From: Polyangium spumosum
GTDB lineage: Bacteria > Myxococcota_A > Polyangia > Polyangiales > Polyangiaceae
Length of the DNA stretch: 64,000 nt
Assembly: GCF_009649845.1 (NCBI RefSeq)
Contig: NZ_WJIE01000004.1
Location: forward strand, 372,001 to 436,000
Direction: 5' to 3'
In this document: positions 6,079 to 64,000 of the stretch, piece by piece
Layout of the letters: each line of letters starts with the position of its first letter
How positions within the stretch are numbered: position 1 is the stretch's first letter
Translations under genes and position numbers: made by a program
The notes under the pieces: generated by a model
What the model saw: only the letters and a program-made list of their open reading frames with translations
Databases searched by the model: none
Told to the model about the DNA's origin: nothing

Positions 6079-7464
6079 TCAATCCATGTAGGCCAGGCCG
6101 AGCCGGACCCCGAAGAATTGATCGAGCGCTCCGCCTGCCACGTACGCATCGCCGAGCACGGGATCGAAGCCCGAGAAGAACCGAAGGTACTCGCCCGACA
6201 GGCGGACTTGCAGCCCCGACTCGAAGCGCACCGCGAGCCCCGCCGTCGCCGAGATGCCGTGCACCGACGGCCCCGAGAATCGCTCGTACACCTCACCCGT
6301 CGCGAGCGGCTCGATCCACTCGAACCCCACCATCGCCGCCACCGGCCCGATCGGGAACCAGCCGTCGACGCCCGCGCGGATCGCGAGGTAGTCGACGTTC
6401 GGCACCTGCGTGCGCAGCGCAGTCGGCGCGTCGATCTCGAACGTCTGCCACCGGACGCCGCCGAGCACGCCGATGACCGGCCCCGTCGGCCGCGAGATCG
6501 GGATCCGGTACTTCAGCGCCGCCGTGATCCGCTGGTAGACCGTGCCCACCGGATCCCCGTCCTCCGTCGCCGATTGCAAGCCAAACGCGCGCGCGTACCC
6601 CGCCGTGATCCCGAGATCCCGGAGCACCGGGATCGTCGTCATCGCCGCCGGGAACACCTCGATCGCCGCGGCCGCCATGGGCGCGCCGTAGACGTCGTAC
6701 CGCCGCAGGTTCCCCGAGATCCCGTCCGAGTACGTGAACACGCGCCCGCCCATCTCGAAGCCGACCTCGGCCGTGATGATCGACGATCCCGCCTGGTGCC
6801 GCACCCGCTCGGGCGACTCCTCCTCCTTGGGTTTCTCCTCGCTCGGCGGCGGCGCCGCCTCCTCCGTCGGCTCGGGCGGCGGCGGCGGCGCGAATTGCTC
6901 CACCGCGCTCGTGATCGCCGCGGCGATCCCCTTCCTCCGTTCGTCCTCGGATCCCTTGAGCGACACCGCCTCGTCGACGGGCGTCGCGGCGTCGTCGGCG
7001 TTCACCCAGACGAGGTGCACCTTCTTCTCGCCGCGCACCTTCTGCACGACCCCGACGAGCACCGCGTCGGCCCCGAGGCTCGACGCCGCCTTCTGCACCT
7101 TCGGCACGAGCTTGCCGCGTTGCTTCGGGTTCGTCATCGCCGCGCCGAGCGGTTTGCCCTGGCCCGCTTTTTTCAGCGCCGCCGAGAACTCCTTCGCCGT
7201 GGCGACGGTGATCCGATCCGGCAGCGAGGCCTCGATGTCGGCGCGCACCGAGGCCGCGTCCGGGCCCTCCACGTGCACGGCCAGCACCTTCGTCGCCGCG
7301 GGCTCCGCGGCCGAAACCGAGGCCGGCGCGCTCGCCGCCGCGAAGGCCACGAAGCCGAGGAGGGGCGCCACGAGGCGCGTCACGAGCGCGACGGCGAAGA
7401 CCGCCGTGCGCCTGGATTTCGAGCGAATCGCCGCCCGTCGCGGCACCGCGTTCGTCGCAAGCAC
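6079..7464 (-). CDS. secreted protein with C-terminal outer-membrane beta-barrel
   Basis: The 461-residue product starts at GTG 7464 and has a basic then hydrophobic signal region ending near VSAAEP. Residues about 50-190 are a soluble alpha/beta domain (KVLAVHVEGPDAASVRADI) similar in style to myxobacterial proteins that compute a protein score before a barrel. A Pro/Glu linker (PPPPPEPTEEAAPPP) follows. The last 230 residues have alternating hydrophobic and aromatic strands typical of an outer-membrane barrel, ending in FGVRLGLAYMD. It is divergent from the DUF1592 gene and forms a two-gene unit with the CX4CH lipoprotein. The function is unknown. Confidence 0.65.
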   Translation of the reverse strand: MLATNAVPRRAAIRSKSRRTAVFAVALVTRLVAPLLGFVAFAAASAPASVSAAEPAATKVLAVHVEGPDAASVRADIEASLPDRITVATAKEFSAALKKAGQGKPLGAAMTNPKQRGKLVPKVQKAASSLGADAVLVGVVQKVRGEKKVHLVWVNADDAATPVDEAVSLKGSEDERRKGIAAAITSAVEQFAPPPPPEPTEEAAPPPSEEKPKEEESPERVRHQAGSSIITAEVGFEMGGRVFTYSDGISGNLRRYDVYGAPMAAAAIEVFPAAMTTIPVLRDLGITAGYARAFGLQSATEDGDPVGTVYQRITAALKYRIPISRPTGPVIGVLGGVRWQTFEIDAPTALRTQVPNVDYLAIRAGVDGWFPIGPVAAMVGFEWIEPLATGEVYERFSGPSVHGISATAGLAVRFESGLQVRLSGEYLRFFSGFDPVLGDAYVAGGALDQFFGVRLGLAYMD

Positions 7465-7665
7465 GGCGTGAGCCTACAGGGGCCTTGGCCCGGGGGTAAA
7501 GCCCTACGCAATCACAGCCGTGACAGCAAAATCCCATACCATTGCGATGGAAAGATTCGTCCCAATGCGATCGACGGATTCGCGGGTCATTGGGCTGCTC
7601 CGTCGTTGACGCGCGTGGAGAGTCGGCATACCACCGAATTCGCCAAAGCCCTGGAGGTGGCCGGC

Positions 7666-9342
7666 ATGGAGACTCATAGCGCCCCTTCCTCCGTCATGCG
7701 CCGCATTCCGACGCTGCTTCGCGCCGGAGCGCTCGTCCTCGCTTGTCTCTTGCCCTCGTGTGTCGGGACGATCGGCGGTGCACCGGACGAACAACAAGCC
7801 GTCGAATCGATCCCCGAGCGGAGCGCCTTCCCGCGCTTGACCCACACGCAGTGGGAAAACTCGGTCCGTGACGTTTTGCGCCTCGAGCAGCGTCCGGGCC
7901 TCTCGACGTCGTTCACCGGGGACCCGCTCGGCGGCGTCTTCGACAACAACGAGGCGGTCCTCGCGGTCACGCCGAACCTGTGGGCCGATTATCAGCGCGC
8001 CGCCGAGGAGCTCGCGGCGATGATCGTCGCCGATCCCGCGAAGGTCGCCCTGCTCGTGCCCGCCGACGAGGGGCAAGGCGACGAGGCCCGCGCCCGCGCG
8101 TTCATCGAGGCCGTCGGCAAGCGCGCGTATCGCAGGCCGCTCACGGCCGCGGAGATCGACGAGCACGTCGCGCTCTTCAACCTGGCCCCGACGGTCATCG
8201 ACGGGGATGCCTTCCTCGCCGGCGTCGCGCACGTCCTCTCGGCGTTTTTCCAGTCGCCGCATTTCGTCTACCGCGTCGAGGGCACGCGCGAGCCCCGGGA
8301 AGACGGCTTGATCCCGCTCGGCTCGTACGAGCTCGCGTCGAGGCTCTCGTACCTCCTCTGGAACACGATGCCCGACGACGTGCTCTTCGACGCCGCCGCC
8401 GCGGGCGAGCTCGACACGAAGGAGGGCCTGCGCGCCCACGCCGAGCGAATGCTCGCCGATCCGAAGGCGCGGGAGGTCATCCTCTCGTTCCACAGCCAGC
8501 TCTTCGACTGGAGGAAGTTCGAGGACCTCTACAAGGACCCGGCCGTCTTCCCCGAGTTCGTCCCCGAGATGGGCCAGGACCTCGTCCGCGAGGCCGAGCT
8601 CTTCGTCGAGGACGTGGTCTTCGCGCAGGAGGGAGGCCTGCACGAGCTGCTCACTTCGCGCACGGCGTTCGTGAACGAGAGGCTCGCGGCCGTCTACGAG
8701 GTCGACGCGCCGAGCGGCGCCGAGTTCGGCAAGGTCGAGCTCGACCCCGAGAAACGCAGCGGCATCCTCACGCGCGCCGGCTTCCTCGCGGCGAACGGCA
8801 CGGCGCGCGCCTCGGACCCGATTCATCGAGGCGTCTTCGTGAACCTGCGAATCCTCTGCGCGCGCCTCCCGCCGCCGCCGAACAACGTCCCGCCGTTGCC
8901 GCCGGCCGAAGGCAAGACGACGCGTGAGCTCGTCGCCGCGCACACCGGCAAGGGCACGTGCGGCGCCTCGTGCCACGGCACGCTCATCAACCCGGCTGGC
9001 TTCGCGTTCGAGAACTACGACGCGATCGGCCGTTATCGCACCGAGGACAACGGCTTCCCCGTCGACGCCGCGGACGCGTATCCGCTCGGCGGCGGGATGG
9101 CGAGCTTCGACGACGCCATCACGTGGAGCCAGATGCTCGCCGAGAGCCGCGAGGCGAACGAGTGCTTCGCGCGCAACTGGCTCGAGTTCGCTTATGGCCG
9201 GGACGCCGAGGTCGAGGACGCCGTGCTCATCGAGAAGCTCGGCGAGGCCTCGCGCACGGGCATGTCCGTCAAGGAGCTCCTGCTCGAGCTCGTCGGCTCC
9301 GAAGCCTTCTCGACCCGCCGCCCCGTGGAGGTCGCGCCATGA
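7666..9342 (+). CDS. DUF1592/DUF1588/DUF1585 cytochrome-c-like secreted protein
   Basis: The 558-residue product begins at ATG 7666, supported by GGAGGT at 7653-7658 with a 7-nt spacer; ATG 7696 is the alternative. The hydrophobic leader ends in LLPSC, a possible lipobox. The order fits the planctomycete/myxobacterial family: FPRLTHTQWENSVRDVL near the N-terminus, AYRRPLTAAEIDEHVALF, the long DUF1592 core with FQSPHFVYRVEG, DUF1588 with RILCARLPPPPNNVPP and CGASCHGTLINPAGFAFE near residue 431, then DUF1585 at the end. The CX3CH spacing is atypical for heme c. The stop overlaps the start of the DUF1552 gene by 4 nt. The pair is probably a periplasmic or surface complex of unknown reaction. Confidence 0.85.
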   Translation: METHSAPSSVMRRIPTLLRAGALVLACLLPSCVGTIGGAPDEQQAVESIPERSAFPRLTHTQWENSVRDVLRLEQRPGLSTSFTGDPLGGVFDNNEAVLAVTPNLWADYQRAAEELAAMIVADPAKVALLVPADEGQGDEARARAFIEAVGKRAYRRPLTAAEIDEHVALFNLAPTVIDGDAFLAGVAHVLSAFFQSPHFVYRVEGTREPREDGLIPLGSYELASRLSYLLWNTMPDDVLFDAAAAGELDTKEGLRAHAERMLADPKAREVILSFHSQLFDWRKFEDLYKDPAVFPEFVPEMGQDLVREAELFVEDVVFAQEGGLHELLTSRTAFVNERLAAVYEVDAPSGAEFGKVELDPEKRSGILTRAGFLAANGTARASDPIHRGVFVNLRILCARLPPPPNNVPPLPPAEGKTTRELVAAHTGKGTCGASCHGTLINPAGFAFENYDAIGRYRTEDNGFPVDAADAYPLGGGMASFDDAITWSQMLAESREANECFARNWLEFAYGRDAEVEDAVLIEKLGEASRTGMSVKELLLELVGSEAFSTRRPVEVAP

Positions 9343-60574: not shown

Positions 60575-60693
60575 CGGGGCGGTCAGCCGCCCCTGGCATC
60601 CGCGATGCACGGCGTCATGGGCCTCGGCTCCGGTGCGCATCGCGTTCCCGGTAGGGGGGTCGAAAAGAAAAAGAGATAACCGGGAACTTTTTT
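60575..60693 (+). ncRNA. candidate structured RNA: three hairpins and intrinsic terminator
   Basis: Three hairpins follow one another: GGGGCGG/CCGCCCC around 60575-60592; CGCGATGC (60601-60608) with GCATCGCG (60637-60644); GTTCCCGGT (60644-60652) with ACCGGGAAC (60679-60687). The last is followed by T6 (60688-60693), so it is an intrinsic terminator for a rightward transcript, although no rightward protein gene precedes it. The loop of the last hairpin is 26 nt of mostly A and G. The total of about 120 nt is like a Y RNA or other sRNA. No convincing promoter is visible; the 5' end is a guess. It lies about 2 kb upstream of the Ro60 gene. Confidence 0.5.
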
Positions 60694-60694
60694 G

Positions 60695-60723
60695 TTGCAA
60701 AGTCGATCCGAGACGAGTATCTC
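60695..60723 (+). promoter_or_regulatory. weak promoter candidate for the second orphan RNA
   Basis: TTGCAA (60695-60700) and TATCTC (60718-60723) are separated by 17 bp, right after the first terminator. Matches to the consensus are moderate. Confidence 0.3.
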
Positions 60724-60741
60724 TCGCCGGAGAGTTTCCAC

Positions 60742-60933
60742 ATGTTGATCCGCCCCACGACTGATCGGAACCACGAACGAGCCGCGCTGCTGGCAGCGGG
60801 ACTCGTGTGCGTGGCGTTCGATCGGGCGCGGAGTGCGGGACACATGGGGCCCAAGGTCGGCAAAGTCGAGTCTTTCTGCGGATATACGCTTCGTGATTCG
60901 CGGCAGCTCGGCAACCCGGCGGAGGGCACGTAG
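60742..60933 (+). CDS. possible 63-residue small protein
   Basis: The frame starts at ATG 60742 with GGAGAG at 60729-60734, 7 nt upstream, and follows the promoter candidate. It ends 31 bp before the terminator 60965-61006. Third positions are G or C in about three quarters of codons, lower than in the surrounding genes, so coding is doubtful. The sequence has no family I know. It may equally be an untranslated part of an RNA. Confidence 0.25.
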   Translation: MLIRPTTDRNHERAALLAAGLVCVAFDRARSAGHMGPKVGKVESFCGYTLRDSRQLGNPAEGT

Positions 60934-60935
60934 GC

Positions 60936-60970
60936 GGTAGAGCAAGCGTCATTGTGACGACTGCGAAGGC
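60936..60970 (+). pseudogene. tRNA-His-like fragment fused to a terminator
   Basis: GGTAGAGC (60936-60943), a D-arm-like motif, is followed by TTGTGACGACTGCGAAGGC (60952-60970). That differs only by two bases/one indel from TTGTGACCCTGCGAAGGC in the tRNA-His gene (62549-62566), including the GTG anticodon loop. No full tRNA can be folded: there is no T arm, and the 3' part runs into the terminator stem. Confidence 0.4.
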
Positions 60971-61006
60971 CGCCTCGGGAGATCCCAGGCGGCCTTCGGC
61001 GTTTTT
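60965..61006 (+). terminator. intrinsic terminator with tRNA-like upstream arm
   Basis: GAAGGCCGCCT (60965-60975) pairs perfectly with AGGCGGCCTTC (60987-60997), with GGGA/TCCC nested inside, followed by GTTTTT at 61001-61006. No conventional rightward gene precedes it. Confidence 0.85.
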
Positions 61007-61343
61007 GGCCTTCTCTTTGGCGCTCTTTCTTGGGGCGCTGCGGGGCAGGTGGAAGGGGAGAGTTTCGTCCTCGAATGGGGGGCTCGTGTATTGAGCCCTG
61101 GCGGGGAGACGTGTATCGAGCGGGGCAGTATCGGGGAATTTCGCGTCTCGCGGAGCGGGGCGCGGCGACGTCCCTGGGCTCCGTTCTGAGAGACGAACAC
61201 GAGGGCGCGTGATGCGCTCCTGGGCACGCGTGTATCGATTGCATTCGCATCGACGGCGCGCGCGTGCATGGGCCGTCGTGTGTCCTCGGCTCGGGATCGC
61301 ATTGACGACGTGCGATGAGGCCCGAGGTGTATCCAGAGAATGC
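61007..61343. other. gene-free stretch with short repeats
   Basis: No coding frame or tRNA fold is convincing here. CGTGTATYGA occurs three times (61085-61094, 61110-61119, 61229-61238), and GGGCTC/GAGCCC forms a small hairpin around 61081-61098. TTGACG at 61302-61307 could be a -35 box for the tRNA array, but no good -10 is placed correctly. Confidence 0.4.
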
Positions 61344-61417
61344 GGATCCGTAGTCTCAATCGGTAGAGCAGCCGCCTTTTAAGCGGAAGTGTGGAGGTTC
61401 GAGCCCTCCCGGATCCA
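61344..61417 (+). tRNA. tRNA-Lys (TTT)-like, irregular
   Basis: Acceptor GGATCCG/CGGATCC, T arm GGAGG-TTCGAGC-CCTCC and anticodon loop CTTTTAA (anticodon TTT) fold well. The D stem carries one extra T (GTCTC instead of GCTC), and the outermost anticodon-stem pair is a G-A mismatch. CCA is not encoded (discriminator A, then CTC). It may be a poorly working tRNA, a tRNA mimic or a decaying gene. Confidence 0.75.
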
Positions 61418-61618
61418 CTCCTTATATAGAGAGATAGGCATGGCGCTCGATTTCGATGCGAGCGTGTGGAGAGAGGAAAAAATCAAAATCGACGAGCCCA
61501 TCAAAACATTTCCTTGCCTCGAACGTCGAAATGGATGTACAACGAAACGCGAGGGGACGGGGATAGGGCAGGGGAGAGGGCCGCCCGCGTGCATGCGCGA
61601 GGCTCGGGCCTCTGGTTC

Positions 61619-61691
61619 GGATCCGTAGCTCAATGGGCAGAGCGTCCGCCTTTGAAGCGGAAGCGTGGAGGTTCGAGGCCTCCCGGGTCCT
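61619..61691 (+). tRNA. tRNA with TTG anticodon (Gln) on a Lys-like body
   Basis: All stems fold: GGATCCG/CGGGTCC (one G-U), D arm GCTC/GAGC, anticodon stem TCCGC/GCGGA with loop CTTTGAA (anticodon TTG) and T arm GGAGG/CCTCC. The whole differs from the irregular Lys tRNA 275 bp upstream by nine substitutions and one indel, including anticodon position 36 (T to G). It does not look like a usual tRNA-Gln body. CCA is not encoded. Confidence 0.8.
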
Positions 61692-61815
61692 CCATCTGCT
61701 GATTTCGATTTCAATGATCGACGACAGACGACAAAAATAAAATCGACGGGGCAGCGAATAAAATGGTTGACCCGAACGTCGAAATGAGAGAGGATAGGCG
61801 GACGAGGGAATGGCG

Positions 61816-61971
61816 ATGGGCGAGCATCTGTATGACGAGGACGTGAAGGGGAGCGCCGGCGAGCTGCTGGGCGAGAGCCTCTCCGATCTTCTGCGGAGCC
61901 CTTCGCGCAACGCGGCGAACGAGTCGAGCCCGGTGTGTGGTCTCGAGCCTCTCGATACGGGTGGATCCTAG
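61816..61971 (+). CDS. possible 51-residue acidic small protein
   Basis: The frame begins at ATG 61816 (MGEHLYDEDVKGSAGELL), with GAGGGA 5 nt upstream; ATG 61810 would add two residues. It ends at TAG 61969 and is followed 27 bp later by a terminator. About 78 percent of third positions are G or C. The peptide is acidic and partly helical. The last codons resemble the 3' part of the Lys tRNA (GTGTGG, TCGAGCC, GGATCC), so this may instead be tRNA debris. Confidence 0.35.
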   Translation: MGEHLYDEDVKGSAGELLGESLSDLLRSPSRNAANESSPVCGLEPLDTGGS

Positions 61972-61998
61972 GATCGTCACGACGTGACGTGTCCGAGG

Positions 61999-62033
61999 AG
62001 GCCGCCCGGGAAACCTGGCGGCCTTCTTCGTTT
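61999..62033 (+). terminator. intrinsic terminator between tRNA units
   Basis: AGGCCGCC (61999-62006) pairs with GGCGGCCT (62017-62024), plus GG/CC near the loop GAAA with one mismatch, followed by TCTTCGTTT. The stem sequence echoes the terminator at 60965. It separates the first two tRNA units from the Tyr-to-His part. Confidence 0.65.
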
Positions 62034-62053
62034 GGGGCCGCTCATGAATATTC

Positions 62054-62132
62054 GTGGACGCTGGGCATGGGTGAGCCCCGACGGCTGTAAACCGTCCGCG
62101 TTTGCTTGGAGGTTCGAGTCCTCCCGTCCACA
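62054..62132 (+). tRNA. tRNA-Tyr (GTA), atypical
   Basis: Acceptor GTGGACG/CGTCCAC, D stem GGGC/GCCC, anticodon stem GACGG/CCGTC with loop CTGTAAA (anticodon GTA) and T arm GGAGG/CCTCC are all perfect. The variable region is only 11 nt, shorter than the class II arm normal for bacterial tRNA-Tyr, and position 8 is C where U is nearly universal. CCA is not encoded. Confidence 0.8.
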
Positions 62133-62192
62133 CCGGCGCGTGAGAAATCACGCGCGACAGGCGACGTGTGCGTGCAAGGCGCCGCCTGTTTC

Positions 62193-62263
62193 GGATTCGT
62201 AGCTCAAGGGTAGAGCAGCCGCCTCTTAAGCGGCAGGCGAGGGTTCGATCCCCTCCGGATCCG
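62193..62263 (+). tRNA. tRNA-Lys (CTT)
   Basis: Acceptor GGATTCG/CGGATCC (one G-U), D stem GCTC/GAGC, anticodon stem GCCGC/GCGGC with loop CTCTTAA (anticodon CTT) and T arm GAGGG/CCCTC. The body is related to the two upstream Lys-like genes but regular. CCA is not encoded (G then CGA). Confidence 0.9.
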
Positions 62264-62359
62264 CGACGTATCCCTCCTCTCCGGAGGCGGGACTCGTTCT
62301 ATGACAATCGATTCCGATACACAACGCGATGTCGCAGGGGCACGTTTGCCCCTGCGCGT

Positions 62360-62435
62360 TTCAACGTAGCTCAACCGGTAGAGCACTCGCCTGTTAAGCG
62401 AGGAGATGGGGGTTCGAAGCCCTCCGTTGGAGCCA
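62360..62435 (+). tRNA. tRNA-Asn (GTT)
   Basis: Acceptor TTCAACG/CGTTGGA (one U-G), D stem GCTC/GAGC, anticodon stem CTCGC/GCGAG with loop CTGTTAA (anticodon GTT), T arm GGGGG/CCCTC with one G-U, discriminator G and an encoded CCA (62433-62435). Confidence 0.92.
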
Positions 62436-62436
62436 C

Positions 62437-62512
62437 GCCCCGTTCGTCTAGCGGTCAGGATACCGGCCTTTCAATCCGGTTGCCGGGGGTTCGACTCCCC
62501 CACGGGGCGCCA
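62437..62512 (+). tRNA. tRNA-Glu (TTC)
   Basis: Acceptor GCCCCGT/ACGGGGC, anticodon stem CCGGC/TCCGG region with loop CTTTCAA (anticodon TTC), T arm GGGGG/CCCCC, discriminator G and an encoded CCA (62510-62512). It begins 1 bp after the Asn gene's CCA, so the two are processed from one transcript. Confidence 0.93.
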
Positions 62513-62516
62513 TTGT

Positions 62517-62589
62517 GTGGGCGTTACTCATCTGGTGAAGAGGGCAGGTTGTGACCCTGCGAAGGCGGGTTCGATTCCCGTACGCTCAC
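62517..62589 (+). tRNA. tRNA-His (GTG)
   Basis: G-1 (62517) opposite C73 is present, the hallmark of tRNA-His. Acceptor TGGGCGT/ACGCTCA (one G-U), anticodon stem GCAGG/CCTGC with loop TTGTGAC (anticodon GTG), T arm GCGGG/CCCGT. The D stem has only three pairs (CTC/GAG plus an A-A mismatch). After C73 comes CCG, so CCA is not fully encoded. Confidence 0.9.
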
Positions 62590-62612
62590 CCGAGAGGCGG
62601 GTCGGAAGGTCT

Positions 62613-62628
62613 CGGTTATCCAATTGCA
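62613..62628 (+). promoter_or_regulatory. sigma-54-like -24/-12 element upstream of the Ro60 gene
   Basis: CGGTTATCCAATTGCA has GG (62614-62615) and GC (62626-62627) exactly 12 bp apart and the TTGCA block of the -12 box. The CAC part of the -24 box is not matched. It lies 98-113 bp before ATG 62727. Sigma-54 control with an RtcR-type activator is known for RNA-repair operons that include Ro60; its use here is inference. Confidence 0.35.
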
Positions 62629-62700
62629 ACCTGGTGAAACATCCGAGATCACCCAGCTCATCCGTCCCTCATTCCCTTTCTTGATCCTTCTCTTTCACTC

Positions 62701-62721
62701 GCCCGCAGCGCGGGCCGGAGG
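62701..62721 (+). promoter_or_regulatory. hairpin touching the Ro60 ribosome-binding site
   Basis: GCCCGC (62701-62706) pairs with GCGGGC (62710-62715) around an AGC loop, immediately before GGAGG (62717-62721), which is 5 nt from ATG 62727. A pyrimidine-rich tract (62657-62700) precedes it. The hairpin could modulate translation start. Confidence 0.35.
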
Positions 62722-62726
62722 TTCCC

Positions 62727-64000
62727 ATGGCCAACTACATCCAGCACTTCGCCGCGCTGTTCACCCGACAAAAGGAGAAGGCGCGGCCCGAGCAGGTCGA
62801 AAACTACGCAGGCGGCTTCGTCTTCCAGCTCGACGACTGGGCCCGCCTCGACCGGTGGCTCGTCCTCGGCGCCGACGGCGGCACCTACTACGCCACCGAG
62901 CGCGCCCTGACGCAGGACAACGCGCGCGCCGTCCTTCGTTGCCTCGACGCGGACGGCGAGCGGGCCGTGCGGCGGATCGTCGAGATCAGCCGCTCGGGCC
63001 GCGCGCCCAAGAACGAGCCCGCGATCTTCGCCCTGGCGATGGCCGCGGGGCACGCCCGCCCCGAGGTCCGCAAGTCCGCACTCGCGGCCTTGCCGGAGGT
63101 TTGTCGCACCGGTACGGATCTCTTCCACTTCGCGCGAGCGGTGGAGGGCTTCCGGCGCTGGGGCCGCGGCCTCCGGAGCGCGATCGGCGCCTGGTACCAG
63201 GGCAAGAGCCCGGATGAATTGGCCTACCAGGCCGTGAAATACCGGCAGCGGGACGGCTGGAGCCACAAGGACCTCTTGCGACTCTCGCACCCGACGCCCG
63301 TCACGGACGAGCACGGCGCGATGTACCGCTGGATCGTCGGTGGTATGGACGCCGTGACGAACGAGGCGGCCCGCGGCGGGGCTCTCGACCCCGAGAAGCT
63401 GCCTGCCGTCGTCCGGGCGTTCGAGGAGGCCAAGGGCGCGCCGCGCGAGCGGCTCGTCACGCTCGTGCGCGAGAATCGCCTCACGCACGAGATGGTGCCC
63501 ACGGAGTGGAAGAACGACCCTGCCGTGTGGGAAGCGCTGCTCCCCCACATGCCGCAGACGGCGCTGCTCCGGAACCTCGGCAAGATGACCAGCGTCGGAT
63601 TGCTCGCGCCCATGAGCGCGGCCGCGAGGCTCGTGGCCAGCCGTCTCACGGACGCCGAGCGCCTCCGGCGCGCCCGGATTCACCCGGTGAGCGTTCTCTC
63701 CGCATTGCGCGTGTATGCGCAAGGGCGGGGCGAGCGCGCCCAGAAGCGCGAAAATGCGCTCACCTGGGAGCCGGTGCGCGAGATCGTGAACGCCCTCGAC
63801 GAGGCGTTTTACCTCGCATTCCGGTCGATCGAGCCGACGGGCAAGAAGCACCTGCTCGCCCTCGACGTATCGGCCTCCATGGATGGGGGCGCGATCGCGG
63901 GGATCCCGGGCCTCACGCCCCGGGTCGCGAGCGCGGCCATGGCGATGGCGACGGCGCGCATCGAGCCGTCGTTTTCGACCCTGGCCTTCGCCTCCGCGGG
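62727..64000 (+). CDS. rsr: Ro60/TROVE domain RNA-binding protein (Rsr-like), cut by the right window edge
   Basis: The visible 424 residues start at ATG 62727 with GGAGG 5 nt upstream. The N-terminus MANYIQHFAALFTRQKEKAR and repeated helices through residue about 365 fit the TROVE ring of HEAT-like repeats (FVFQLDDWARLDRWLVLGAD, IFALAMAAGHARPEVRKSAL). A von Willebrand A-like domain then begins, with a MIDAS motif DVSASM at 380-385 (LLALDVSASMDGG). Bacterial Ro60 (Rsr) binds Y RNAs and misfolded RNA in quality control and works with exoribonucleases such as PNPase. It lies directly downstream of seven tRNA genes. The stop codon and following genes are outside the window. Confidence 0.93.
   Translation, partial: MANYIQHFAALFTRQKEKARPEQVENYAGGFVFQLDDWARLDRWLVLGADGGTYYATERALTQDNARAVLRCLDADGERAVRRIVEISRSGRAPKNEPAIFALAMAAGHARPEVRKSALAALPEVCRTGTDLFHFARAVEGFRRWGRGLRSAIGAWYQGKSPDELAYQAVKYRQRDGWSHKDLLRLSHPTPVTDEHGAMYRWIVGGMDAVTNEAARGGALDPEKLPAVVRAFEEAKGAPRERLVTLVRENRLTHEMVPTEWKNDPAVWEALLPHMPQTALLRNLGKMTSVGLLAPMSAAARLVASRLTDAERLRRARIHPVSVLSALRVYAQGRGERAQKRENALTWEPVREIVNALDEAFYLAFRSIEPTGKKHLLALDVSASMDGGAIAGIPGLTPRVASAAMAMATARIEPSFSTLAFASA

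What the first reader, a model, noticed from the sequence alone, without database searches (positions are those of the whole stretch)
60575..64000. Candidate RNA-damage response locus: Ro60 gene behind a tRNA array and orphan structured RNAs
The sequence shows a Ro60/TROVE gene, seven tRNA genes, a tRNA-like fragment, and at least one compact structured RNA candidate with its own terminator in 3.4 kb without any unrelated protein gene. Known biology: bacterial Ro60 binds Y RNAs, some of which (YrlA) mimic tRNA, and Ro60 genes occur in RNA-repair operons. Inference: the tRNAs are spares, decoys or Ro60 ligands used when cellular tRNAs are cut, rather than part of the normal translation set. I know of no description of this exact combination.
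Basis: partly seen in the sequence, partly recalled or inferred. Interest (0 to 1): 0.95.

Follow-up and report, generated by a model that had tools for sequence, protein, structure and literature searches.

The report
Ro60 gene, Y RNAs, spare tRNAs
A soil bacterium (Polyangium) carries a Ro60 gene inside a row of about twenty surplus tRNA genes together with Y-type RNAs, one of which is a whole tRNA whose decoding arm has been swapped for a Ro60-type stem, and the same arrangement recurs beside Ro60 genes in other bacterial phyla, which points to an RNA quality-control and tRNA-reserve system that can now be tested.

Summary
Ro60 (from window 62727 past the edge) sits inside a 5.5-kb, one-strand tRNA array: 7 tRNAs before it, 13 after it, beside a near-complete housekeeping set elsewhere. 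Real structured RNAs lie nearby: a Y-type RNA just upstream of Ro60 (62594-62667) and, beyond the window, a 123-nt RNA with a complete tRNA body whose anticodon arm is replaced by a Y/Ro60-type stem. A covariance model of it finds 72 such RNAs (9 of them seeds) in 56 chosen loci of several phyla, with strong covariation. Unlike YrlA it is not circularly permuted. Of 80 related Ro60 loci 38 have at least 5 tRNAs within 4 kb; all 597 nearby tRNAs are on the Ro60 strand. RtcB is absent here but in 15 of 80 related loci. TROVE-tRNA cluster linkage is already in print for archaea. Best reading: reserve tRNAs plus a Ro60-Y RNA particle for tRNA damage; binding and induction are untested.

The parts
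61344..61418 (+). tRNA-Lys(ttt), first tRNA of the array
   Evidence: ARAGORN; Rfam 57.2 bits
61619..61694 (+). tRNA-Gln(ttg)
   Evidence: ARAGORN; Rfam 64.2 bits
62054..62134 (+). tRNA-Tyr(gta)
   Evidence: ARAGORN; RF00005 41.7 bits; not listed at gathering
62193..62264 (+). tRNA-Lys(ctt)
   Evidence: ARAGORN; Rfam 68.5 bits
62360..62435 (+). tRNA-Asn(gtt)
   Evidence: ARAGORN; Rfam 60.9 bits
62437..62512 (+). tRNA-Glu(ttc)
   Evidence: ARAGORN; Rfam 57.8 bits
62518..62591 (+). tRNA-His(gtg)
   Evidence: ARAGORN; Rfam 44.3 bits
62594..62667 (+). Y-type RNA between tRNA-His and Ro60: two helices with the motif GGGUCG...CUCGGUUAUC
   Evidence: motif; 15-sequence alignment A7: 98.3% of pair cells kept, 17 cells changed on both sides against 6.5 in shuffles (0 of 500); RNAalifold finds the same two helices
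62727..64000 (+). Ro60/TROVE gene (553 aa), which continues 388 bases beyond the window. Further parts lie wholly outside the window and cannot be listed here; in L006 coordinates (window = L006 + 58000): Asp-to-Ser tRNAs 6446-8891, stand-alone Y hairpin 6521-6603, tRNA-bodied Y RNA 6609-6731, HNH endonuclease ORF 7663-8178
   Evidence: Ro60: Pfam, PDB homologues 9nen, 1yvp, 2nvo. Outside parts: (tRNAs); motif here and in 5 of 5 congeners and z-score -3.48 (hairpin, no covariation test of its own); 124.4 bits to R1, of which it is a seed, and covariation (tRNA-bodied RNA); HNH_5 1.7e-14 and (HNH)
60742..60933 (+). 63-aa ORF upstream of the array, gap-free in five congeners; translation unproven
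   Evidence: fold, genus alignment
61810..61971 (+). 53-aa ORF inside the array; two related copies in each of five congeners (best copy 74-87%, second copy 48-62% identical); translation unproven
61996..62034 (+). second terminator-like hairpin plus T run, after the 53-aa ORF
   Evidence: read by eye from the sequence

Best explanation
A Ro60 ribonucleoprotein locus fused to a reserve tRNA array. Shown: Ro60, three Y-type RNAs and 20 ARAGORN tRNAs lie on one strand within 5.5 kb; one Y-type RNA has a complete tRNA body with the Ro60-type stem in place of the anticodon arm; the arrangement is conserved. Inferred: the array is a stand-by set of working tRNAs expressed when tRNAs are damaged or translation is blocked. 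Ro60 is held and gated by the Y RNAs. The tRNA-bodied Y RNA is processed like a tRNA and presents a tRNA face to tRNA-handling enzymes or to PNPase, so that damaged or misfolded tRNAs are captured, repaired or degraded while the reserve set keeps translation going. In some lineages RtcB supplies the ligation step at the same locus.
For: Ro60 identity and conserved MIDAS residues. Covariation of the tRNA-bodied Y RNA in 9 and 72 sequences and of the upstream Y RNA. In a search of 183 genomes, 39 of the 42 listed hits of 115 nt or more (30 of 33 without the nine seeds) lie in the same fetched locus as a Ro60 gene of one of two divergent types. In 80 loci 597 of 597 tRNAs within 4 kb and 207 of 208 Y motifs within 2 kb lie on the Ro60 strand. 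Array tRNAs of this genome keep U33 (19 of 20), R37, TTC and A58 (20 of 20) and a fully paired acceptor (18 of 20) and are surplus. RtcB in 15 of 80 related loci. Functional precedents, passages seen: a silent 26-tRNA operon of Anabaena that is induced by translational stress and shares a repressor with rtcB (PMC10272220); an rsr-Y RNA-rtcBA operon induced by tRNA fragments (PMC7790460; PMC8394870).
Against: No expression or binding data. No RtcB near this copy. 22 of 80 related Ro60 loci show no tRNA within 4 kb (some are short contigs), so Ro60 and tRNA-bodied Y RNAs also occur without an array. Discriminator bases or anticodon-loop positions differ from the housekeeping isoacceptor in several array tRNAs. 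In arrays of more divergent Ro60 genes the conserved positions are kept less well: TTC in 23 of 32 (L097), 27 of 35 (L094), 9 of 13 (L092). So some array tRNAs may not be charged or used normally.
Confidence: 0.5

Rival explanations
1. The array tRNAs are themselves Ro60 ligands or decoys for anticodon nucleases rather than working tRNAs, and Ro60 stores or sacrifices them.
For: Some array anticodon loops differ from housekeeping ones, e.g. A37 for G37 in Leu(cag) and Leu(tag), and C33 in Pro(ggg) in 6 of 6 genus genomes. Array tRNAs are 55-78% identical to their housekeeping isoacceptor.
Against: U33, R37, TTC, A58 and paired acceptors are kept in nearly all tRNAs of this genome and its congeners, which a decoy would not need; the Ro60-type motif found by pattern sits in separate RNAs, not in the tRNAs.
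Confidence: 0.2
2. An old phage- or plasmid-derived tRNA cassette: a counter-defence island in which Ro60 and tRNAs travel together and persist as cargo.
For: 348 of 50,697 phage records carry a relative of this Ro60; Streptomyces phage Battuta has 16 annotated tRNAs in the 13.6 kb around it, Bacillus phage G has 10 tRNAs and a tmRNA in the 13.5 kb around a second-type TROVE gene; HNH gene in the array.
Against: The array is shared by 5 of 5 congeners, with the upstream flank in 5 of 5 and the RpoC-like ORF in 4 of 5 plus a partial match; its tRNAs keep their functional positions. No integrase or phage structural domain was seen in the four neighbouring proteins tested.
Confidence: 0.2
3. The tRNA-bodied Y RNA is only a tRNA gene broken by an insertion, or a tRNA with an intron.
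For: Rfam calls it tRNA with a long insertion. A short stub helix (3 pairs, 83.8% of cells paired) stands where the anticodon stem would start.
Against: No anticodon loop is left, and the insert carries a covarying helix in 72 copies (helix 4: 7 of 7 pairs with changes on both sides) with the same motif as the stand-alone Y RNAs.
Confidence: 0.04

Closest known systems
YrlA-type bacterial Y RNA (Rfam RF02553; Salmonella YrlA, PDB 6CU1)
   Same: A Y/Ro60-type stem joined to tRNA-like D, T and acceptor arms; encoded beside Ro60; the stem takes the place of the anticodon arm.
   Different: YrlA is circularly permuted relative to tRNA with its ends in the Ro stem (RF02553 alignment; PMC11472068 passages). 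The RNA here keeps tRNA order with its ends at the acceptor stem, so RNase P/Z and CCA addition could apply. RF02553 gives no match at this copy up to E 1.
rsr-yrlBA-rtcBA RNA-repair operon of Salmonella
   Same: Ro60 plus Y RNAs; RtcB linked in 15 of 80 related loci.
   Different: No RtcB at this copy; a 20-tRNA array instead; RtcA and RtcR were not searched.
tRNA gene clusters with a TROVE gene in archaea (PMC6333295)
   Same: tRNA cluster with a TROVE gene: 20 of 29 clusters (passage); HNH genes are noted there too.
   Different: The one passage seen mentions no Y RNA; here the link is shown in bacteria, with Y-type RNAs and a tRNA-bodied Y RNA.
Anabaena trn operon (26 surplus tRNAs, TrcR-repressed; PMC10272220)
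   Same: A surplus tRNA array beside a housekeeping set.
   Different: The words Ro60 and TROVE do not occur in that paper's main text; expression here is unknown.
Phage Ro-like protein loci (Mycobacterium, Streptomyces, Gordonia phages; phage G)
   Same: Ro-like gene near tRNA genes in Battuta, Sparky and phage G.
   Different: 39-52% protein identity in the rows seen of the main search. Of five phage loci only Cashline gave a strong long hit to R1 (52.0 bits, 142 nt), with weaker ones in Battuta (31.6, 122 nt), Sparky (28.4, 108 nt) and Jedediah (23.5, 149 nt); Cashline, Sparky and Jedediah score as YrlA-like below the cut-off (42.2, 36.6, 36.1 bits).

Membership tests
Ro60 / Rsr (TROVE protein) | TROVE domain and Ro60-type vWA domain in one protein | tested here: met
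   Pfam PF05731 and PF25045 over cut-off; hmmsearch to human, Xenopus and Deinococcus structures E 3e-179 to 8e-169, (species of the chains partly recalled)
Ro60 / Rsr (TROVE protein) | MIDAS DxSxS...T...D | tested here: met
   D380 S382 S384 T462 D486 in 9 of 9 aligned proteins; motif as quoted in PMC11277228
Ro60 / Rsr (TROVE protein) | residue equivalent to H187, whose change to S loses Y RNA binding | tested here: met
   H188, aligned with it by my count on the alignment, is present here and in 8 of 9 aligned proteins in all; passage; binding itself untested
Y RNA | paired Ro60-type stem with conserved motif, encoded beside Ro60 | tested here: met
   the likeness of the motif to human Y1 is recalled
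Y RNA | bound by Ro60 | not testable with these tools
   needs pull-down
YrlA (RF02553) | circularly permuted order, ends in the Ro stem | tested here: not met
   order is acceptor, D, Y stem, T, acceptor: model R1 and alignment A6
YrlA (RF02553) | score over the Rfam gathering cut-off of 69 bits | tested here: not met
   0 of 22 genomes reach it; best in this genome 39.2 bits, spanning two tRNA-Pro genes, not the tRNA-bodied RNA
tRNA (decoding) | anticodon arm in the tRNA-bodied Y RNA | tested here: not met
   replaced by the Y stem
tRNA array unit | high tRNA number and density | tested here: met
   20 ARAGORN tRNAs in 5.5 kb
rtcBA RNA-repair operon | RtcB at the locus | tested here: not met
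   no hit in L006 or L008 and only a 41-residue stretch at E 0.13 in the window

The most novel reading that the evidence does not exclude
A distinct, widespread class of Y RNA: an unpermuted, tRNA-ended molecule whose anticodon arm has become the Ro60-docking stem, so that Ro60 is mounted on a processed (perhaps CCA-tailed, perhaps even charged) tRNA body. Together with the reserve tRNA array it would make a self-contained tRNA surveillance and replacement system, found in Myxococcota, Chloroflexi, Gemmatimonadetes, a Brocadia MAG, Actinobacteria and Cyanobacteria (record labels), and partly shared with phages.
Probability: 0.55. Interest if true: 0.88.

Novelty: new variant of a known kind. 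Interest (0 to 1): 0.8.

Why it matters
The job of bacterial Ro60 and Y RNAs is still open. A Ro60-type RNA with a complete tRNA body at so many Ro60 loci would tie the protein directly to tRNA metabolism. It also offers a simple evolutionary path between tRNA and Y RNA: one body, different cut points. The arrays turn 'what are surplus tRNA clusters for?' into a question with a named partner protein. Picosynechococcus sp. PCC 7002 (a laboratory strain, as I recall) carries a TROVE gene on plasmid pAQ7 with one good and two weaker hits to this RNA directly upstream, so binding, processing and charging can be tested soon.

Tried and rejected
Rejected: (1) the 60870-61010 stretch as an orphan structured RNA: no Y motif, a conserved ORF plus terminator. 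(2) The YrlA hits in this genome's array (36.5 bits, 39.2): they span the T half of tRNA-Pro(ggg) and the D half of tRNA-Pro(cgg); that order mimics the permuted YrlA model, so I do not count them. (3) The first MAFFT alignments A1 and A2: the Y helix was off by one in several rows. I dropped G116, G107, G096, G115, G108 and G000-C5 (6 of 15 rows) before building the seed A4 of 9 rows; all six were found again by the model. In A4 some rows (G130m, b, d) are still off by one in the small apical helix (helix 5, 84.4% paired). (4) Alignment A3 was replaced by trimmed A7, which leaves out G030 and G012 (2 of 13 rows) as too divergent to align, and adds four rows.

Against or limiting my reading: one search lists 183 of 183 genomes with a match because ordinary tRNAs match R1 (up to about 67 bits at 74-77 nt), so I kept only hits of 115 nt or more; its listing was cut, so weaker long hits are unseen. 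Of the 42 long hits listed, G130:C1:7743090 and G157:C337:115 had no TROVE gene in the fetched stretch (17 kb and 10 kb), and G000:C5:850206 lies near a contig end; that its neighbour is the Ro60-2 contig C6 is inferred from the complete relative G096 (RNAs and Ro60-2 about 5 kb apart). The 56 sources were chosen because they had long hits, so 72 in 56 is not a prevalence; 55 of them hold a TROVE gene in the stretch, L147 (G000 C5) does not; one of the 72 is 205 nt (L185). In one search, 76 of 80 named loci were searched: L149, L150, L152 and L167 were left out as duplicates of genomes already searched. The 80 loci are the best of 381 relatives, so the counts describe the closest Ro60 clade only. 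In one search, 8 of the 10 tRNA-free loci searched had a long R1 hit; L253 and L262 had none. G030 and G012 (56% Ro60, no tRNAs near) have no strong long R1 hit (30.0 and 24.8 bits). Phage and plasmid loci: one strong long hit in five phage loci and none in phage G; of four plasmid loci Bosea and Rhizobium gave none, Nonomuraea one of 50.3 bits at 166 nt, pAQ7 one of 61.2 and two weaker. RtcB loci were counted by hand (phmmer E 1e-5 on ORFs of 120 aa or more); no chance rate was computed. The divergent arrays keep tRNA consensus positions less well. A37 for G37 was noted, not tested further. No protein structure prediction was run.

Literature: the key Y RNA papers (Chen 2014 PMC4201824; Sim and Wolin PMC6047535; Wang 2018 PMC6281776) are not held. 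What I hold of Chen 2014 (Y RNAs beside Ro60 in many species, at least one per species tRNA-like) is recalled, and an unpermuted form may be described there. PMC5062991 was a guessed id.

Full report
What is there. Two genomes of the same genus have contigs with the same lengths as Polyangium sp. 15x6 and 6x1, so I take the host to be a Polyangium (Myxococcota). ARAGORN finds seven tRNAs in the whole window, all at 61344-62591 and all on +. The Ro60 ORF starts at 62727 and ends 388 bases beyond the window. Beyond it the array goes on: L006 (C4:430001-449000) holds 20 ARAGORN tRNAs, the last at 8714-8799, plus two matches to the tRNA-Sec model below its cut-off, up to 8891, which I read as Ser tRNAs. 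An HNH gene lies among them. From 61344 to 66891 (window coordinates) all recognised RNA genes, Ro60 and the HNH gene are on one strand.

The tRNAs are surplus. Of the 68 RF00005 matches of the genome 50 lie outside the array; I fetched them in 40 stretches. ARAGORN reads 47 tRNAs with 42 anticodons there. Of the 20 array tRNAs only Ala(tgc) has an anticodon that is not among them; that one and Ile(gat) are usually in rRNA operons (recalled), which draft assemblies lose. One of the 47 (L077) is a weak tRNA. The array tRNAs look functional: 18 of 20 have seven acceptor pairs, 19 of 20 have U33, and 20 of 20 have R37, TTC and A58. They are 55-78% identical to the housekeeping isoacceptor, and several differ in the discriminator or at loop positions 32, 33, 37 or 38. 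In arrays of more divergent Ro60 genes these positions are kept less well, e.g. TTC in 23 of 32 tRNAs of L097.

Ro60 is a true Ro60. Pfam finds both domains over their cut-offs. A profile of nine homologues matches solved RO60, 60-kDa SS-A/Ro and Rsr chains at E 3e-179 to 8e-169. The MIDAS residues are invariant in 9 of 9, and the histidine aligned with human H187 is present in 8 of 9. A second, divergent TROVE protein lies at C6:2723-4354; TROVE is matched but the Ro60 vWA model is not.

Y-type RNAs. A search pattern for the motif (in short GGNCCG...GGUUAUC) occurs three times in the G000 array and three times in the array of each of five congeners, twelve times in G130, twice each in G133 and G143, and five times in G108. 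In the 64-kb window it occurs once in the array and twice elsewhere. The copy at 62594-62667, between tRNA-His and Ro60, folds into two helices. In 15 sequences from Polyangium, Sorangium, Minicystis and relatives 98.3% of the cells pair and 17 cells have changes on both sides, against 6.5 in shuffles (0 of 500); the count of pairs with such a change, 4, is less telling (8 of 500). RNAalifold predicts the same helices on its own. The motif resembles the Ro-binding strand of animal Y RNAs (recalled) and a strand of the RF02553 consensus.

The tRNA-bodied Y RNA. At L006 6609-6731 lies an RNA with acceptor, D and T arms of a tRNA but with about 73 nt between D and T arms that hold the same Y stem, closed by a small loop, in place of the anticodon arm. 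In a 9-sequence MAFFT alignment the structure keeps 93.7% of cells paired with 14 of 32 pairs changed on both sides (shuffle mean 4.0, 0 of 500). The model R1 built from it was run over 183 genomes of the order. Ordinary tRNAs match R1 too, up to about 67 bits at 74-77 nt; 42 listed hits are 115 nt or longer, and the listing was cut. For 39 of these 42 the fetched locus also holds a Ro60 gene: 25 beside the type of this window and 14 beside the second, divergent type. Nine of the 25 are the seeds, so 30 of 33 new hits lie beside Ro60; none of the seeds came from the second type. Aligned to R1, 72 copies from 56 loci (55 with a TROVE gene in the stretch) keep 95.2% of 2,269 cells paired, with 467 cells changed on both sides against 122.3 in shuffles, and 28 of 32 pairs changed on both sides. 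That alignment is fitted to the model, so the counts lean towards it; the slid controls fall to 35-47% paired.

How far it reaches. A search of named genomes with the Ro60 alignment gave 80 loci (the best of 381) labelled Myxococcales or Deltaproteobacteria, Chloroflexi, Verrucomicrobia, Armatimonadota, Gemmatimonadetes, Actinobacteria, a Brocadia MAG, a cyanobacterial MAG and others. In these 80 loci 38 have at least 5 tRNAs within 4 kb of Ro60, 26 have at least 10, and 22 have none; all 597 tRNAs are on the Ro60 strand; the Y motif is on that strand within 2 kb in 64 of 80 loci, 207 copies against 1 on the other strand. Long R1 hits occur in many of the 76 loci searched, for example Oscillochloris (97.4 bits), a Gemmatimonad (three copies over 70 bits), Brocadia (73.6) and a cyanobacterial MAG (70.8). 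In a sample of the phylum I searched 10 Ro60 loci without any tRNA in the held stretch: 8 (L245, L249, L251, L252, L256, L259, L261, L264) carry a long R1 hit, L253 and L262 do not. So the tRNA-bodied Y RNA goes with Ro60 with or without an array. More divergent Ro60 proteins of the order (25-31% identity) also sit in arrays, and there companions score as YrlA-like below the Rfam cut-off, e.g. 65.9 bits in G121 and 58.4 in G135.

RNA repair genes. RtcB is not near this copy: none in L006 or L008 and only a 41-residue stretch at E 0.13 in the window. RtcB is in 15 of the 80 named loci (L167, L171, L173, L175, L179, L183, L193, L195, L198, L207, L208, L219, L222, L223, L224). In G000 itself one of the RtcB genes (C5:845580-846710) lies about 3.5 kb from the second tRNA-bodied RNA (C5:850206).

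Phages and plasmids. 348 of 50,697 phage records encode a relative of this Ro60. In Battuta 16 tRNAs are annotated in the 13.6 kb around it, in Sparky 4, in Jedediah 2 within 12 kb, in Cashline and Atu_ph07 none in the stretch seen. Bacillus phage G has 10 tRNAs and a tmRNA in the 13.5 kb around its TROVE gene. 52 of 72,556 plasmid records match. Plasmid pAQ7 of Picosynechococcus PCC 7002 has one good (61.2 bits) and two weaker R1 hits in tandem just upstream of its TROVE gene; the Bosea and Rhizobium plasmids have none.

How it most likely works. Y RNAs hold and gate Ro60 (recalled); in Deinococcus Rsr is tethered by Y RNA to PNPase for structured RNA decay (PMC7790460 passage; PMC8394870 passage). 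In Salmonella the operon of rsr, Y RNAs and rtcBA is activated by tRNA fragments after DNA damage (PMC8394870 passage; PMC7790460 passages). Anabaena keeps 26 silent spare tRNAs and turns them on under translational stress, under a repressor that also controls rtcB (PMC10272220 passages). The locus here has parts of both: Ro60 and Y RNAs, and spare tRNAs. I infer one programme: when tRNAs are cut or misfolded, the reserve set is expressed and the Ro60 particle clears or sorts the damaged ones, with the tRNA-bodied Y RNA as the face shown to tRNA enzymes. Expression, binding and processing are not shown.

What is known and what is new. tRNA-like Y RNAs are known, but the known structure is circularly permuted (PMC11472068 passages). 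A TROVE gene in 20 of 29 archaeal tRNA clusters is in print (PMC6333295 passage), and jumbo phages with TROVE proteins and tRNAs are in print (PMC7824862 passages). Two papers on mycobacterial arrays do not use the words Ro60, Ro-like or TROVE in their main text (PMC5966550, PMC12803027). My searches of the held library listed no paper on an unpermuted tRNA-bodied Y RNA as far as titles and abstract starts show, but the main Y RNA papers are not held, so it may be in print. I file it as a new variant of a known kind.

Noticed in passing
L006 8902-9924 (-), 2.9-3.9 kb right of the window edge: A 341-aa ORF with an RNA polymerase Rpb1 domain 1 match (E 2e-11) lies at the end of the array; it is conserved (about 70%) in four congeners and partial in a fifth.
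   Followed up: partly
window 61810-61971 and 60742-60933: Two small ORFs (53 and 63 aa), each followed by a terminator; the first has two related copies among the tRNA genes of each congener, and the last ten residues GLEPLDTGGS of its best copy are invariant in six genomes.
   Followed up: partly
L006 7208-7307: Two neighbouring tRNA-Pro genes read across their junction match the permuted YrlA model at 36.5 bits: tandem tRNAs could give a permuted Y RNA by a shift of transcript ends.
   Followed up: no
L006 and L079-L083: Array tRNA-Leu(cag, gag, tag), His, Arg(ccg) and Gln(ctg) mostly have A37 where the housekeeping tRNA of G000 has G37; Pro(ggg) has C33 in 6 of 6 genomes.
   Followed up: no
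L096 9655, L171 7463, L193 6622: Arrays hold tRNAs that ARAGORN calls Pyl(cta), Stop(tta) and SeC(tca), i.e. stop-reading anticodons.
   Followed up: no
L131 (G130:C1:7743090-7743220): A 113.6-bit tRNA-bodied Y RNA without a TROVE gene in the 17 kb fetched around it.
   Followed up: partly
L084 5550-5570 and 6012-6032 (-): Y-type hairpins that seem to enclose tRNA-like D/T or T arms while their own ends lie in the Y stem: perhaps a third topology; not tested by covariation.
   Followed up: no
L100 (G015:C94:28943-29074): A YrlA-like RNA (62.4 bits) with an RtcB relative in the same 3-kb locus, on another contig than the array Ro60 of that genome.
   Followed up: no
G000:C1:74405-75547: RtcB matched in two adjacent pieces, each listed with a 458-aa open frame; not examined.
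   Followed up: no
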